DNA of 64,000 nucleotides from Roseimicrobium sp. ORNL1 (lineage in GTDB: Bacteria > Verrucomicrobiota > Verrucomicrobiia > Verrucomicrobiales > Verrucomicrobiaceae). The translations under genes and the position numbers were made by a program. The stretch lies in assembly GCF_011044495.1 (NCBI RefSeq), contig NZ_CP049143.1, forward strand, positions 7,068,001 through 7,132,000, written 5' to 3'. The notes under the pieces are model-generated. The model was not told the DNA's origin. It worked only from the letters and a program-made list of their open reading frames with translations, and ran no database searches. The first letter of the stretch is position 1. Every line of letters starts with the position of its first letter. Shown one piece after another: positions 49,781 to 53,990 of this stretch.

Positions 49781-50602
49781 ATGATTCCTCCTCGCCTCAC
49801 CTCGTTCCTCCTCGCATTCGCGTTCCTCTTCTCCTGCGCCACCGCATCTACCTGCTTCGCTGCTCCACCAACATCTGCAGCGAGCTACGGTGAAGCTGCG
49901 TGCGAAGGTTCGTACAAGCGGCATGTGCAAGGCATCTGCACCAACGGCAAGGATGCCATCTACTGGTCATGGACCGAGGCGCTGGTGAAGACGGATCTGC
50001 AGGGTCATATTCTCAAAAACGTGCCTGCTGCCGATCATCATGGAGACCTGACCTATCACGACGGAAAGATCTACGTCGCGGTGAACCTCGGCAAGTTCAA
50101 CCTGCCTGCCGGGAAGGCAGATTCGTGGGTGTTTGTTTATGATGCAGACTCGCTCGCAGAACTCTCACGCCATCCCGTACCCGAAGCCGTCCACGGCGCT
50201 GGGGGCATGACCTGGAAGGACGGGCACTTCTTCATTGTCGGCGGCCTGCCCACGGACGGGAAAGAAAACTACGTCTACGAATACGATGACAAGTTTACCT
50301 TCGTCCGCCGACATGTGCTGGATAGTGGATACACCCTGATGGGAATCCAGACGGTGGAATATACCAACGGCACCTGGTGGTTCGGCTGTTACGGCAAGCC
50401 TCCCGTACTGGTGCGTGCCGATGAGAACTTCAAGGTGACCGGGAAATGGGAATTCAACGCTGCCGTTGGCATCATTGCCCTCCCGGATGGCCGGTTCCTC
50501 ATCGGGGAGAACAAGGTGGACAAGGAAAAGAAGAACACCGCGCGGGTGCGCTTCGCGCGGGTGGATGCGGAGAAGGGTCTGGTGCTGGAATCCGGGAAGT
50601 AA
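49781..50602 (+). CDS. Secreted beta-propeller-like protein
   Basis: 273 residues from ATG 49781 (MIPPRLTSFLLAFAFLFSCATA), the first start with a signal peptide. The mature part reads as repeated four-strand blades with recurring phrases: GICTNGKDAIYWSWTEALVKTDLQG, LTYHDGKIYVAVNLG, MTWKDGHFFIVGGL, NGTWWFGCYG, IIALPDGRFLIGEN. Such proteins bind or cleave small ligands, but no catalytic residues stand out. No family name is claimed. It follows the mglA-like gene on the same strand and may or may not share its promoter. Confidence 0.78.
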   Translation: MIPPRLTSFLLAFAFLFSCATASTCFAAPPTSAASYGEAACEGSYKRHVQGICTNGKDAIYWSWTEALVKTDLQGHILKNVPAADHHGDLTYHDGKIYVAVNLGKFNLPAGKADSWVFVYDADSLAELSRHPVPEAVHGAGGMTWKDGHFFIVGGLPTDGKENYVYEYDDKFTFVRRHVLDSGYTLMGIQTVEYTNGTWWFGCYGKPPVLVRADENFKVTGKWEFNAAVGIIALPDGRFLIGENKVDKEKKNTARVRFARVDAEKGLVLESGK

Positions 50603-50659
50603 ACTTTGTGGGGCAGATGCCGTGATCGACTACGCTGGCAACAGCAAAGCATCCCGTGA

Positions 50660-50735
50660 ACGTCTCGTGAGAAGAACACACCATACCAGGATGCAATGCT
50701 CTTCGGCGGACCACCTTGCGCGAAGCGCCTTGGAG
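50660..50735 (+). repeat. Left arm of a dispersed inverted repeat, split by IS110
   Basis: Begins ACGTCTCGTGAGA (50660-50672) and ends with 25 bases (50711-50735) that are the exact reverse complement of 52670-52694. The 38 bases between the two conserved blocks are similar in length in both copies. The copy stops at 50735, where the IS110 element begins; it resumes at 52486. Confidence 0.85.
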
Positions 50736-50750
50736 ATAGTCTGAGACGGT

Positions 50751-50756
50751 CTGCAA
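50751..50756 (-). promoter_or_regulatory. Candidate -35 box in the right end of IS110 (junction promoter half)
   Basis: Reads TTGCAG on the transposase strand. Linear, no -10 follows at the right distance. In the excised circle, the right end joins the left end through the core CT and the box would stand exactly 17 bases before TATAGT (52478-52483). IS110 relatives are known to build a sigma-70 promoter across that junction. Confidence 0.7.
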
Positions 50757-50781
50757 GCGTGGAATGATGATTTTGTTCACC

Positions 50782-52167
50782 TCAAGTTGGAGCAAGCTGT
50801 GATGTGTCATCTGACTGGTGGCGCTTTTGAGAGGCAGTGAAGATGGATTGGTCGTAGGGTTTGCGATCCTTCCAGATGCGCCAGAGGATGCGCAGCCAGC
50901 GCCAGGCCAGGGCTCGGACGGCCGTGTGGTGGTTTTTACCCTTGGCGCATTGACGCTCATAAAACTGGAGCGCCCAGTCGCAAAACTTGATGGAACACGC
51001 TGCGAACTCGTGGAAGGTCTGGCGCAGGTATTTGGGACAGGCGTGACGTCGCAGGATGAGGCTGGTCTTGCCGCTGGATTTGCGTACCGGAGACAGGCCG
51101 CTGAAGTTCTGCAGGGCTTGGGCGTCGGCCCAGCGCTCCCGCTGCGAGCCCATGGCGCACAGCAGTCGGGGTTCCAGCGCCGCCCCCGCACCGGGAAGGC
51201 TTTTGAAGATGAAGGCATCGGGATGCGCTTCGTAGAGTTCGTGGATGCGCTTGTCGTAGTCTTCGATGGCCGGCAGCAAGGTGCGCAACTGGCGCACCAG
51301 TCGGGCTACCTCCAACTCAGCAGGCAGCAGCACGGCATGGTCGTGAACCAGCGCAGTAGCTTTGGCAATGAGGTCCAGTCGCTGCTGCACCCATGCTTCA
51401 CGCCGCACGTGGTGCTTGTAGAAGAGTGAGCGCAACCGATGGGGTTTGGCCGCCTGCAGCTTCTGGAGAGTAGGCCAGCGTTGCAGCAGTTCCAAGAGCA
51501 TGGGATTGGCCATTTCACGGCACAACTCGAGGGCCACCGGATAGCACAACTTCAACTGGCTGGTGAGTTGGTTGGTCAGGGCCGTGCGCTCATCCACCGC
51601 ATGGCGGCGGTTGCGGCACAGGGCGTCCAGCAGGCGGGTCTGCTCATCATCAGGCTGCCACAGACGCAGTTGGTCGCGATGGCGGTAGAGCATGTCCTCG
51701 ATGGCATCGGCATCGGTGTTGTCGGCCTTGGCTCCACTGGAGCGAAAAGCCTTGCGGTAGTTGGCTGAAGCCAGGGTGGGAATGGCGTAAATATCGATGA
51801 AGTCAGTGTGCTCCATGAGGGCATAAATGAGCACGCTGCGGCTCTGCTCCACGGCCACGGCAATGCGGTGGCCTCCAAAGTGGGTGCGCAGTTGCTGCAA
51901 CCAGGCTGATACTTCGGCGGTGGCAAAGCTGCCGCGGTGCAACCGGGTGGGCTGGGCCACATCGCGCCGGGTGTAAAACTGCTTTTGATCCCCCCAGTCA
52001 ATGCCGATGAAGGCCTCATAGACAGGGGCAGGAACCGGTGGGGGTGGCGGGCAGGAGTCCGCCGCAGGAGAAGCAAGACAGGAGTCAGGGGCCGGTGACA
52101 GCCCGCTGGGTGGGGAAGCTTTCATAAGCCAATGGAAGGTTGCGCTCCGGAGAGCTTGGGCCGACAT
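50782..52167 (-). CDS. IS110-family DEDD transposase
   Basis: 461 residues from ATG 52167, or 447 from ATG 52125 (MKASPPSGL), which removes a Pro-rich head; the choice is open. The RuvC-like DEDD domain shows IGIDWGDQKQFY (Asp), VAVEQSRSV (Glu), and TDADAIEDMLYRHR (Asp, Asp). A long helical coiled-coil region (~180-330) links to the C-terminal Transposase_20 domain (FKSLPGAGAALEPRLLCAMGSQRERW ... SGLSPVRKSSGKTSLILRRHACPKYLRQTFHEFA), which in IS110 proteins carries the catalytic Ser. Catalytic residues appear intact. It acts with a bridge RNA from its own 5' non-coding end, annotated at 52180-52471. Confidence 0.96.
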   Translation of the reverse strand: MSAQALRSATFHWLMKASPPSGLSPAPDSCLASPAADSCPPPPPVPAPVYEAFIGIDWGDQKQFYTRRDVAQPTRLHRGSFATAEVSAWLQQLRTHFGGHRIAVAVEQSRSVLIYALMEHTDFIDIYAIPTLASANYRKAFRSSGAKADNTDADAIEDMLYRHRDQLRLWQPDDEQTRLLDALCRNRRHAVDERTALTNQLTSQLKLCYPVALELCREMANPMLLELLQRWPTLQKLQAAKPHRLRSLFYKHHVRREAWVQQRLDLIAKATALVHDHAVLLPAELEVARLVRQLRTLLPAIEDYDKRIHELYEAHPDAFIFKSLPGAGAALEPRLLCAMGSQRERWADAQALQNFSGLSPVRKSSGKTSLILRRHACPKYLRQTFHEFAACSIKFCDWALQFYERQCAKGKNHHTAVRALAWRWLRILWRIWKDRKPYDQSIFTASQKRHQSDDTSQLAPT

Positions 52168-52179
52168 TGGGCATGCAGC

Positions 52180-52471
52180 TGCAGGCTTGAACGAAGGACT
52201 TATAGAGATTCGTCAAAGCGAAAAAGTCTGAGCATTCGTTGGGGCCTGGAGACACATCCACAGTCGAAATTCTCCAAACAAGCATCATGTGCTCAGTGCG
52301 CAGATTCGTGCCGTGGATGTGCATGCACCGGGCGGTGGCGGCCACCACCGCCCGGCCTCCGAAGTCTAACTCACCACGCCCAACGGGCGCGGCGGAAAGT
52401 TATTCACAAATCGGCGGCCACCACGCAGCTCCTTGCGGCTGCCACAGGCCGCCGATTGATGAATAACTTCC
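52180..52471 (-). ncRNA. Candidate IS110 bridge RNA (target- and donor-binding loops)
   Basis: Read on the minus strand, 5' to 3'. (1) A 5' hairpin with arms 52471-52447 and 52419-52394. (2) A second hairpin, 52355-52328 (11 bp). (3) Target-binding loop: outer stem 52311-52320 with 52254-52263 plus CGAA/UUCG; left guide CUGCGCACU (52295-52303), inner hairpin GAGCA/UGCUU, right guide GUUUGGAG (52272-52279). (4) Donor-binding loop: outer stem AACGAA/UUCGUU (52235-52240 with 52190-52195) plus GGC/GCC; left guide CUCAGACUUUUU (52221-52232), right guide CUAUAAG (52199-52205). Guides match the target and donor ends (see findings). Both loops and the 5' stem are the known IS110 bridge-RNA layout. 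The RNA is longer than the IS621 one. Ends are approximate. Confidence 0.84.
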
Positions 52472-52477
52472 GAGGCA

Positions 52478-52483
52478 ACTATA
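52478..52483 (-). promoter_or_regulatory. Candidate -10 box in the left end of IS110 (junction promoter half)
   Basis: Reads TATAGT on the minus strand, two bases inside the core dinucleotide. It would lie 17 bases after TTGCAG (50751-50756) in the circular form and start transcription near 52471, the base where the 5' hairpin of the bridge RNA begins. Confidence 0.72.
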
Positions 52484-52485
52484 AG

Positions 52486-52509
52486 TGCGTGTGCGAAGCA
52501 CCGCTTTGG
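52486..52509 (+). repeat. Continuation of the split repeat beyond IS110
   Basis: TGCGTGTGCGAAGCACCGCTTTGG, given here as TGCGTGTGCGAAGC then ACCGCTTTGG; it is the exact reverse complement of 52646-52669 in the intact copy. Together with 50711-50735 it rebuilds the 49-base core. Bases 52510-52645 between the two copies hold no gene and would be the loop of the ancestral palindrome. Confidence 0.85.
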
Positions 52510-52645
52510 TGGGAAGCTTTGGGGTGCGGAGCTTCGAGCAGGAACATTTATGCCAGGTAGTTTTGCATCACAGGGACGCCTCGAGCTGCGAGCTCCGCTT
52601 AGGTCAGGAGTAGATCCTGCATTATCCACCTCGCGGCGTTTCCTC

Positions 52646-52745
52646 CCAAAGCGGTGCTTCGCACACGCACTCCAAGGCGCTTCGCGCAAGGTGGCACCCG
52701 CATGGGATGCATGTTGCCTGGCACGTCGGACATCTCACGAGACGT
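52646..52745 (-). repeat. Intact copy of the dispersed inverted repeat (uninterrupted IS110 target)
   Basis: Starts CCAAAGCGGTGCTTCGCACA, runs through CGCACTCCAAGG at 52665-52676 where the other copy is interrupted, and ends TCTCACGAGACGT at 52733-52745. It is inverted relative to the copy split by the IS. It shows what the IS target looked like before insertion. A small hairpin (GGCACGTC, 52720-52727; GACGTGCC, 52741-52748) sits near its outer end. Confidence 0.85.
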
Positions 52746-52787
52746 GCCGACGCCTCCCACACAAAGGCCAGCCTTAACTCTTCATTC

Positions 52788-53990
52788 TTATTTAAACGTG
52801 ATCTCAGCCCTGGCTGAGGCCTGCTCACGTACGGCCTTGCCAATCACGGTATCGAGTGTCTTGCCTTCGCCGCTCTCCTTTTGCTGGGTGGCCACGTAGG
52901 TTTGACGCTCGTTGTTCAATTCACGGATGCGGGTCTGGAGTTTCTCACGTTCGGCGCATTTCTGCTCCACATAGGCAGCGCGCTCTTCGGGCTTCAGTTT
53001 CTTCATCTCCTCCGGTAGGTCGCCTTCCTTCACGGCCTCCAGATTCACATCACCCTTCTTGCACGCGTCCACGAGATCCCAGCTGCCATTGTAGTAGGAG
53101 GATGAGGCCTTCGAGACAGCGCGCTGCACGGGAGCTCCGGCGGAAGCCTTCGCGCCCGCATTGTTGTCCTGACGCACCTGGTTGTCCTTCCCGGCCCTGC
53201 CCTTGTCGCCGTAGATGATATACGTGTTATTCAGCTCGATGCTGAGCTTCGTGATCTCCTCGTCCTGGGGAGCCTTCACATGCACCACGGCCTTGTCCTG
53301 GTCGATGGTGAGGAACTTGCCTTCCGCAAGGTGCGCGCCTCTTCTCCAGCCACCGTTCGCGCCATCGGTCTCGCTGCCGCAGTGGATCGTATTCACCACC
53401 ACGCCTTTCGAGATGGCGCTGCGGCAGGTCTCATCCGCGCCGACTGGCCCCTGCGTGAAGGGCTCGTTCCCCGCGATGAAGATGGCCTTGTACACGGTGG
53501 GTGACTTGTCCCACGCGAGGTTATCAATGGCTTCACGAATGACCGCACCGCAGTACTCGCTGCCACCATTGGTGGTGAGCTTGAAGAGTTCATCGGACAC
53601 CTTGTCCAAGTCGCGTGTGAAGGGCAGGATCTGCCTCACAAAGTTCGTGCCCGCGCTCAGGTTATTGTTGCCGTACTCATAGAGCGCGACGTGCACCACA
53701 GGAATCTTGTCCCCCTGCTTCGCGTCCTTGAATTCGTTCACAATCTTCCAGAGCTGGGTCTTTGCCTGCTCGATGAGGCCGTCCATGCTGTTGCTGGTAT
53801 CCAGGAGGAGGGCGATTTGCACCGGCGTCTCCTTCTGATCCACCTCCAAATGAGGCTCAAGCTTCGTGGTCAGCGGATTCTTGGGCTTGTCGATCACTGC
53901 CTCCTCCGCGTGGGAGTTCACCATGGCAAAGGCGAACAGAGCCGTGCCCCCGAGAACGAGACTGCTGAAAATTTGAGGTATGGGTTTCAT
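52788..53990 (-). CDS. Secreted VWA-domain protein
   Basis: 400 residues with a signal peptide (MKPIPQIFSSLVLGGTALFAFAMVNSHA). A von Willebrand A domain begins at ~58 with the MIDAS signature LLLDTSNSM (DxSxS), followed by ELFKLTTNGGSEYCGAVIREAIDNLAW and GNEPFTQGPVGADETCRSAISKGVVVNTIHCG. The C-terminal third is charged and helical (EKCAEREKLQTRIRELNNERQTYV). It likely binds a partner protein through the metal site in the periplasm. The pattern matches Verrucomicrobia/Planctomycetes VWA proteins tied to no known pathway. Its stop lies 43 bases beyond the repeat at 52646-52745. Confidence 0.86.
   Translation of the reverse strand: MKPIPQIFSSLVLGGTALFAFAMVNSHAEEAVIDKPKNPLTTKLEPHLEVDQKETPVQIALLLDTSNSMDGLIEQAKTQLWKIVNEFKDAKQGDKIPVVHVALYEYGNNNLSAGTNFVRQILPFTRDLDKVSDELFKLTTNGGSEYCGAVIREAIDNLAWDKSPTVYKAIFIAGNEPFTQGPVGADETCRSAISKGVVVNTIHCGSETDGANGGWRRGAHLAEGKFLTIDQDKAVVHVKAPQDEEITKLSIELNNTYIIYGDKGRAGKDNQVRQDNNAGAKASAGAPVQRAVSKASSSYYNGSWDLVDACKKGDVNLEAVKEGDLPEEMKKLKPEERAAYVEQKCAEREKLQTRIRELNNERQTYVATQQKESGEGKTLDTVIGKAVREQASARAEITFK

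What the first reader, a model, noticed from the sequence alone, without database searches (positions are those of the whole stretch)
52180..52485. A bridge RNA readable by eye in an IS110 element, with guides that fit its own target and donor
The 5' non-coding end of the IS folds into a 5' stem plus two internal-loop structures in the order known for IS110 bridge RNAs. Donor loop: CUAUAAG (52199-52205) is exactly complementary to the 7 bases CTTATAG at the left end including the core CT; CUCAGACUUUUU (52221-52232) copies 10 of 12 bases of the right end up to the core. Target loop: CGCACU of the left guide equals the 6 bases left of and including the core in the intact target, and UUUGGAG of the right guide pairs with CUCCAAG (6 Watson-Crick pairs plus one G-U). 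Four independent guide matches plus compensated stems are hard to get by chance. The target here is a genomic repeat, so the guide pairs give a testable rule for where this family inserts.
Basis: partly seen in the sequence, partly recalled or inferred. Interest (0 to 1): 0.95.

Follow-up and report, generated by a model that had tools for sequence, protein, structure and literature searches.

The report
Bridge RNA of an IS110 element
A jumping gene in this bacterium carries the kind of two-headed guide RNA, known since 2024, that pairs with its own ends and with the site it jumps into; this is a clear new example of that known system rather than a new kind of system.

Summary
The window carries a 1752-bp IS110-group element on the minus strand (50734-52485). 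Its left end encodes a target loop and a donor loop whose four guides match its own target and ends. A second, 100% identical copy sits at the same site of another copy of the same repeat, so ends, target and CT core are fixed by comparison. The four guide words never occur together in 20,000 shuffles.

Stems covary in relatives (17 of 20 pairs with changes on both sides). Target guides follow each element's own flanks, in a hand-read test (left guide 6.4 nt against 3.4 swapped, 0 of 20,000) and in an automatic one (30 and 24 elements; 0 and 4 of 20,000). The 'handshake' base fits in 14 of 14. Joined ends rebuild a promoter. The recombinase keeps DEDD+Ser, and its predicted fold matches IS621 and ISCro4.

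This is a new, well-defined member of the published bridge-RNA family. Extras: a REP-like target repeat (64 exact sites) and a large 5' hairpin with conserved arms that I cannot explain. Expression and activity are untested.

The parts
50734..52485 (-). IS110-group element, 1752 bp counting the CT core at both ends
   Evidence: Identical 1752-base copy at another locus with different flanks; ends fixed against intact target sites
50785..52167 (-). DEDD recombinase, 461 codons (start could also be 52125)
   Evidence: Pfam PF01548 1.6e-21 and PF02371 1.9e-12; D57 E107 D149 D152 S365 invariant in 13 proteins; predicted fold matches IS621 and ISCro4
52476..52485 (-). left end: core CT then TATAG, the -10 box of the circle-junction promoter and right donor sequence
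50734..50756 (-). right end: TTGCAG (-35 of junction promoter), left donor sequence CTCAGACTAT and core CT
   Evidence: 17-bp spacer to TATAGT once ends are joined
52395..52470 (-). long 5' hairpin with arms GTTATTCA / GTGAATAAC
   Evidence: fold; compared in relatives
52372..52395 (-). second hairpin CCGCCGCGCCCGTTGGGCGTGGTG
52328..52355 (-). third hairpin, G+C-rich
52180..52321 (-). bridge RNA core: target-binding loop and donor-binding loop
   Evidence: covariance model match 103.5 bits; covariation. The window is one of the 14 sequences the model was built from
52253..52321 (-). target-binding loop with closing stem
   Evidence: 16 pairs, 12 with compensatory double changes in 14 sequences
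52295..52301 (-). left target guide GCGCACT
   Evidence: 7 of 7 with copy-1 flank, 6 of 7 with window copy
52272..52278 (-). right target guide TTTGGAG
   Evidence: 6 Watson-Crick pairs plus G-U with CTCCAAG
52182..52248 (-). donor-binding loop with closing stem (CAGGC/GCCTG, AACGAA/TTCGTT)
   Evidence: sequence; 4 inner pairs (CGAA/TTCG) 99.0% kept in 26 sequences; the outer stem was not tested for covariation
52221..52232 (-). left donor guide
   Evidence: 10 of 12 identical to the right end (counted by eye)
52199..52205 (-). right donor guide CTATAAG; the next base (52198, U) is the handshake base for the target A left of the core
   Evidence: 7 of 7 pairs; handshake 14 of 14 elements
50711..50735 (-). 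right half of the interrupted target, CTCCAAGGCGCTTCGCGCAAGGTGG
52484..52700 (.). repeat carrying the interrupted left half and, in the other arm, an intact inverted target
   Evidence: matches to query 1805-2021 elsewhere in the genome
52666..52677 (+). intact target CGCACTCCAAGG in the other arm of the same repeat

Best explanation
An IS110-group insertion sequence that moves as a circle guided by a bridge RNA from its left end. Joining the ends in the circle rebuilds a sigma-70-like promoter (TTGCAG-N17-TATAGT) that reads into the left end. The transcript folds into a 5' hairpin region, a target-binding loop and a donor-binding loop. The recombinase holds this RNA. LTG and RTG pair with the two strands of CGCA-CT-CCAAGG in a REP-like repeat, LDG and RDG pair with the circle junction, and strands are exchanged at the CT core. 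Shown here: ends, core, target, guides, covariation, handshake base and active-site residues. Inferred from IS621: expression, RNP assembly, strand exchange and activity.
For: Two identical copies at the same site of two repeat copies with different flanks. Four guides in the published order, absent together in 20,000 shuffles. Target stem covaries on an alignment not fitted to the structure, 12 of 16 pairs; over 26 distinct model matches the covariation score is 0.718 against 0.161 shuffled and at most 0.118 when slid. Hand-read swap tests: LTG longest run 6.43 vs 3.40 over 14 elements, 0 of 20,000; RTG 36 pairs beyond the core vs 7.1 over 8 elements, 4 of 40,320 permutations (true pairing included; two pairs of elements share guides); handshake base 14 of 14 vs 3.9. 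Automatic test with guides cut at fixed model positions and searched over wide flanks: LTG 30 elements 6.37 vs 5.30, 0 of 20,000; RTG 24 elements 6.13 vs 5.43, 4 of 20,000. In G211, 7 of 8 copies sit after GCGCTCC, which the guide encodes. The model finds bridge RNAs, not used to build it, in Cupriavidus, Pseudoalteromonas and Leptolyngbya elements and in an ISEsa2-annotated element. -35 to core spacing is 17 in 8 of 8 elements with a known right end. Predicted fold: IS621 8wt9 E 5.3e-14, ISCro4 9t56 E 8.4e-13.
Against: No transcript or activity data. LTG fails for L024 (run of 3) and for one copy each in G317 (L048) and G211 (L050). By inspection, L015 and L073 match their flanks with the guide shifted by one base. 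The left donor guide test is the weakest: 37 of 56 identities vs 29.1, 180 of 40,320 swaps as good, and L017 gives 1 of 7 unless a one-base bulge is allowed. The right donor guide (7 of 7 in 14 of 14) is not independent evidence: elements were picked by a pattern that includes it, and left ends were located by TATAG or by its complement. Right ends were found by eye with the guides in view. By inspection only the first handshake position pairs in the window copy. The model finds nothing in 5 of 10 further loci tried (L031, L063-L066).
Confidence: 0.96

Rival explanations
1. Target choice is made by the recombinase recognising the REP-like hairpin repeat itself; the RNA similarity to the site is incidental.
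For: The target lies between two small hairpins (GTGC-TTC-GCAC and GCGC-TTC-GCGC, read from sequence) of a strongly palindromic repeat, and IS elements of several families are reported to choose REPs (PMC1525189, passages).
Against: Guides change with flank between elements.
Confidence: 0.02
2. The structure is only a leader of the transposase mRNA that controls translation, not a separate RNA.
For: The RNA as modelled ends 12 bases before the first start codon (52167), so both could be one transcript; the long 5' hairpin resembles structures that block read-through (recalled).
Against: A leader does not explain target guides that track the flanks. A dual role is not excluded.
Confidence: 0.02
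3. A real bridge RNA in an element that no longer moves.
For: Only two copies in the genome although 64 exact target words are free.
Against: The two copies are identical over 1752 bases in different surroundings, the reading frame is open and the residues invariant in relatives are kept.
Confidence: 0.12

Closest known systems
IS621 (IS110 group) and its bridge RNA
   Same: Left-end RNA with 5' hairpin, then target loop, then donor loop; left guides pair with the bottom strand, right guides with the top strand; CT core; junction promoter; handshake base; REP-like target; DEDD+Ser recombinase with matching predicted fold.
   Different: Recombinase only weakly similar in sequence (E 3.2e-7) and with roughly 30-45 more N-terminal residues, depending on the start; the transcript predicted from the junction promoter would be near 300 nt rather than about 177 because of a large 5' hairpin and two more hairpins; different target. 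I did not have the IS621 DNA to compare the RNAs directly.
ISCro4 recombinase (PDB 9t56)
   Same: Best sequence match in the PDB (E 2.7e-9) and similar predicted fold.
   Different: About 18% identity in the structural alignment.
ISEsa2-annotated IS110 elements on enterobacterial plasmids
   Same: About 36% protein identity; the bridge RNA model matches one of them, E 2.8e-16.
   Different: Other guides; its ends were not worked out here.
seekRNA of ISEc21 and IS1111 elements (PMC11187229, passages)
   Same: Same principle: a non-coding-region RNA with pieces complementary to both target strands; in IS110-type elements the region lies upstream of tnp.
   Different: IS1111 elements usually have the region downstream, the reverse order of the two pieces, and subterminal inverted repeats.

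Membership tests
[quoted passage not shown]
   Both Pfam domains over cut-off; D57, E107, D149, D152, S365 invariant in 13 proteins. Equating them with IS621 D11, E60, D102, D105, S241 (passage) is by spacing and is inference
IS110 group of IS110 family with bridge RNA | Long non-coding left end upstream of tnp that holds the RNA (IS1111: right end) | tested here: met
   318 bp upstream of the first start codon, core included, against 48 bp from the stop codon through the core at the right end
[quoted passage not shown]
   Folds and covariation
IS110 group of IS110 family with bridge RNA | First loop pairs with target, second with donor; 5' side with bottom strand, 3' side with top strand | tested here: met
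   All four guides in this order in the window; swap tests in relatives
IS110 group of IS110 family with bridge RNA | Short core shared by target and donor, included in the pairings | tested here: met
   CT from comparison of both junctions with intact sites; within the left donor guide the core C faces a U (possible G-U)
IS110 group of IS110 family with bridge RNA | Promoter rebuilt across the joined ends of the circle | tested here: met
   TTGCAG-N17-TATAGT; sequence only, no transcript
IS110 group of IS110 family with bridge RNA | Handshake base pairs with target position 7 | tested here: met
   U with A in the window; 14 of 14 hand-read elements
IS110 group of IS110 family with bridge RNA | RNA expressed, bound by the recombinase and needed for recombination | not testable with these tools
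   needs RNA-seq, binding and recombination assays
IS1111 group | RNA downstream of tnp | tested here: not met
   RNA is upstream; only 48 bp from the stop codon through the core at the right end

The most novel reading that the evidence does not exclude
The part between the junction promoter and the bridge RNA proper is a separate working module that published IS621-type elements are not known to me to have in this form: a large hairpin whose base keeps the words GTTATTCA and GTGAATAAC (like inverted DnaA boxes; the DnaA consensus is recalled) while its inside changes freely. It recurs in front of different bridge RNAs in several families of the phylum and also stands alone, once beside an ORF that reads like a Y1 (REP-associated) transposase. 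It could tie transposition or bridge RNA supply to a host protein.
Probability: 0.12. Interest if true: 0.5.

Novelty: new member of a known kind. Interest (0 to 1): 0.3.

Why it matters
It gives a fully defined bridge RNA system (recombinase, RNA, donor, core, target) far in sequence from IS621, with two natural insertions and dozens of intact sites, so its guide rules can be tested directly. The comparison with relatives is an independent check that target guides and the handshake base follow the insertion site over large protein distances (28-43% identity to the window protein), and it adds starting points for programmable recombinases. It does not change the picture of how such elements work.

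Tried and rejected
Rfam: only two matches, far below their gathering scores, over 50600-52800. Close relatives by peptide patterns: 13 and 4 stretches matched a pattern in genome contigs and viral contigs, none confirmed by tblastn. Chance matches: rejected. Orphan bridge RNAs in the own genome: the model finds the two IS copies and a third match at E 0.097 that was not followed. I first read L015's core as TC and dropped this, since the right-target guide position fits CT (by inspection). The hairpin pattern is not confined to IS110: 15 of 236 genomes match (reversed-pattern control: one match, in G231). Of 18 loci examined, 5 (L082, L086, L090, L091, L092) have IS110 homology over more than 300 aa, 1 (L093) has a 114-aa piece and 12 have none by tblastn with six queries.

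How elements were chosen: of 50 loci brought by the protein searches (L015-L043, L054-L074), 13 were used with the window in the hand-read tests. They were picked by a donor-loop pattern, and L057 by eye; the other 37 include partial, weak and contig-end hits. One target per element was used. For the multi-copy L025 and L027 types I used a matching copy (as in L047/L049, and L051). Copies printed but not in the sum: L048 run of 3, L050 run of 4, L046 7, L052 8, L053 7, and the window copy itself 6 (its twin, copy 1, with 7 was used). L024 (run of 3) is in the sum. RTG and LDG tests use the 8 elements whose right end I identified; L015, L019, L054 and L073 lacked enough downstream sequence, L022 was not sought, L027 was left out as near-identical to L025. 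The handshake and right-donor tables were read by hand. It looks for the guide anywhere in the flank, not only at the junction; L057's 12-nt run, for one, is not at the junction itself. L118 was entered beside its near relative L021, and L131/L120/L033 carry the same LTG, so the elements are not all independent.

Full report
Observation. The window lies in a single-contig genome of 7.96 Mb. On the minus strand, 50785-52167 encodes an IS110 recombinase with both defining Pfam domains. A second copy lies at 2.48 Mb; the two are identical over 1752 bases, while the sequence around them differs. Comparing both junctions with intact sites fixes the core as CT: left junction CGCACT|TATAG, right junction ACTAT|CTCCAAGG, empty site CGCACTCCAAGG. 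In 20,000 dinucleotide shuffles of 52180-52321 the words CGCACT, TTGGAG, CTCAGACT and CTATAAG occur singly in 1419, 798, 110 and 6 shuffles and never all together; the product of these rates is about 5e-9 if they are independent.

Target. CGCACTCCAAGG occurs 64 times exactly in the genome (reversed-pattern control 1), 50 of these between 1.99 and 2.83 Mb. It lies in a palindromic repeat (one copy folded) whose arms hold two small hairpins, GTGC-TTC-GCAC and GCGC-TTC-GCGC, with the insertion point in the linker between them (read). In both IS copies one arm is interrupted and the other is intact. Among the 30 of 64 sites read, the base at the seventh guide position is A 17, C 8, G 4, T 1. The guide copies G there, which copy 1 has; the window copy has A. 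The longer word CGCACTCCAAGNCGCTTCGCG is found in 4 of 240 genomes: 29 times here, and 8, 3 and 1 times in the others.

Relatives. Protein searches found matches at E 0.001 or better in 45 of 387 genomes of the phylum and 53 of 384 of the class, the own genome included. Fourteen elements (window and 13 loci) were read by hand. Each has two core bases and a TATAG-like word, then a target loop framed by CGAA.../...TTCG, a donor loop framed in the same way, then the gene. Most also have a strong hairpin between the end and the target loop; the L025 and L027 types do not (fold -6 to -7 kcal/mol). On the MAFFT alignment, RNAalifold gives a 16-pair target stem, 12 pairs with double compensatory changes. 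A covariance model built on these 14 was run on 28 sources and matched each once, its own 14 included. Over the 26 distinct rows, 94.4% of cells pair (64.5% shuffled), 17 of 20 pairs have changes on both sides, and the covariation score is 0.718 (shuffled 0.161, slid at most 0.118). That alignment was fitted to the structure, so one search is the fairer test. Four matched elements outside the phylum were not used to build the model: Cupriavidus, Pseudoalteromonas, Leptolyngbya and an ISEsa2-annotated element. Of the 10 sources, 5 gave no match. In 23 of 367 genomes the model has a match at E 0.01 or better.

Do guides follow sites? Hand-read: left target guide against own left flank, mean longest run 6.43 nt over 14 elements, 3.40 when swapped, 0 of 20,000 swaps as good. 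Right target guide: 5 to 8 contiguous Watson-Crick pairs including the core in the 8 elements with a known right end; 4 of 40,320 permutations are as good, the number expected from the true pairing and swaps within two pairs of elements that share guides. The handshake base described for IS621 (PMC11208158, passages) pairs with the target base left of the core in 14 of 14, against 3.9 when swapped. Donor side: left donor guide 37 of 56 identities against 29.1, 180 of 40,320 swaps as good, which is modest; right donor guide 7 of 7 in 14 of 14, including three variant left-end words (CTTATTG, CCTATAG, CCTATGG), but the elements were picked and their left ends located with its help. Automatic: guides cut at fixed model positions and searched in wide flanks give 6.37 against 5.30 for the left target guide (30 elements, 0 of 20,000) and 6.13 against 5.43 for the right (24 elements, 4 of 20,000). 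Misses: L024 fails on the left target guide but fits on the right (6 pairs). In G211, 7 of 8 copies sit after GCGCTCC, and 6 of 8 continue CCAG on the right. Of the 5 G317 copies whose left end was found, 4 sit after GCGCTCC; in 3 further G317 loci the pattern did not find the left end. L057, 41% identical in protein, carries the same target guide words (CGCACT, UUUGGAG) and sits in a site with CGCACT on the left and CTCCAAA on the right.

Mechanism. Joining right and left ends gives TTGCAG-17-TATAGT. The distance from a -35-like word (TTGACG, TTGACT, TCGACG, TTGTAA or TTGCAG) to the end of the core is 17 in 8 of 8 elements with a known right end. Thus the circle would transcribe the left end, as shown for IS621 (PMC11208160 section 5). 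The recombinase keeps D57, E107, D149, D152 and S365, and its predicted structure (mean pLDDT 83.1) best matches IS621 and ISCro4 complexes. Expression, binding and activity are inferred.

Comparison with print. I read sections 5, 6, 7 and 12 and passages of PMC11208160, and passages of PMC11208158, PMC11187229 and PMC1525189. Seven features of bridge RNA elements were tested from sequence and met; expression and activity could not be. A search from 2024 for two of 'bridge RNA', 'IS110' and 'Verrucomicrobi' found 21 papers and listed 15; none listed held 'bridge RNA' together with 'Verrucomicrobi'. The search says nothing of papers outside the library.

What remains odd. Between the junction promoter and the bridge RNA proper the window has about 150 nt with three hairpins. 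The first (52395-52470) has arms GTTATTCA/GTGAATAAC. By both words recur in L022, L055, L058 and L060 and, in changed form, in L015, L054 and L057; similar arms are seen in L063-L066. They are absent from L017, L020, L024, L046, L050 and L073 among others. Stand-alone copies exist. It may just be a large form of the published 5' stem-loop; the word conservation is unexplained.

Noticed in passing
G000:C1:1997713-2820566 (outside the window): 50 of 64 exact target words CGCACTCCAAGG lie in about 0.82 Mb, a tenth of the chromosome, often as inverted pairs about 165-300 bp apart. Why the REP-like repeat is crowded there is unknown.
   Followed up: partly
52395-52470: Hairpin arms GTTATTCA/GTGAATAAC shared by left ends of several IS110 lineages; TTATTCACA resembles a DnaA box (consensus recalled). 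The same words also occur in clusters in G149 and G175; what those clusters are was not tested.
   Followed up: partly
L083, L084, L094, L095: Stand-alone hairpins of the same kind, with TGATACG-like words in front and no IS110 gene found beside them by tblastn; L083 has an ORF that reads like a Y1 (REP-associated) transposase (not checked against Pfam).
   Followed up: partly
G000 whole genome: 17 matches to Y1_Tnp (PF01797), one inside the repeat-rich stretch at 2.515 Mb and one at 2.006 Mb; candidates for spreading the target repeat.
   Followed up: no
L063-L066: IS110 relatives with a left-end hairpin of the same kind, but no match to the bridge RNA model; their guide RNA may have another form.
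   Followed up: no
L136 (G211:C1:2212800-2216400): Two copies of the G211 element lie head to head, their left ends about 0.34 kb apart, both after GCGCTCC.
   Followed up: no
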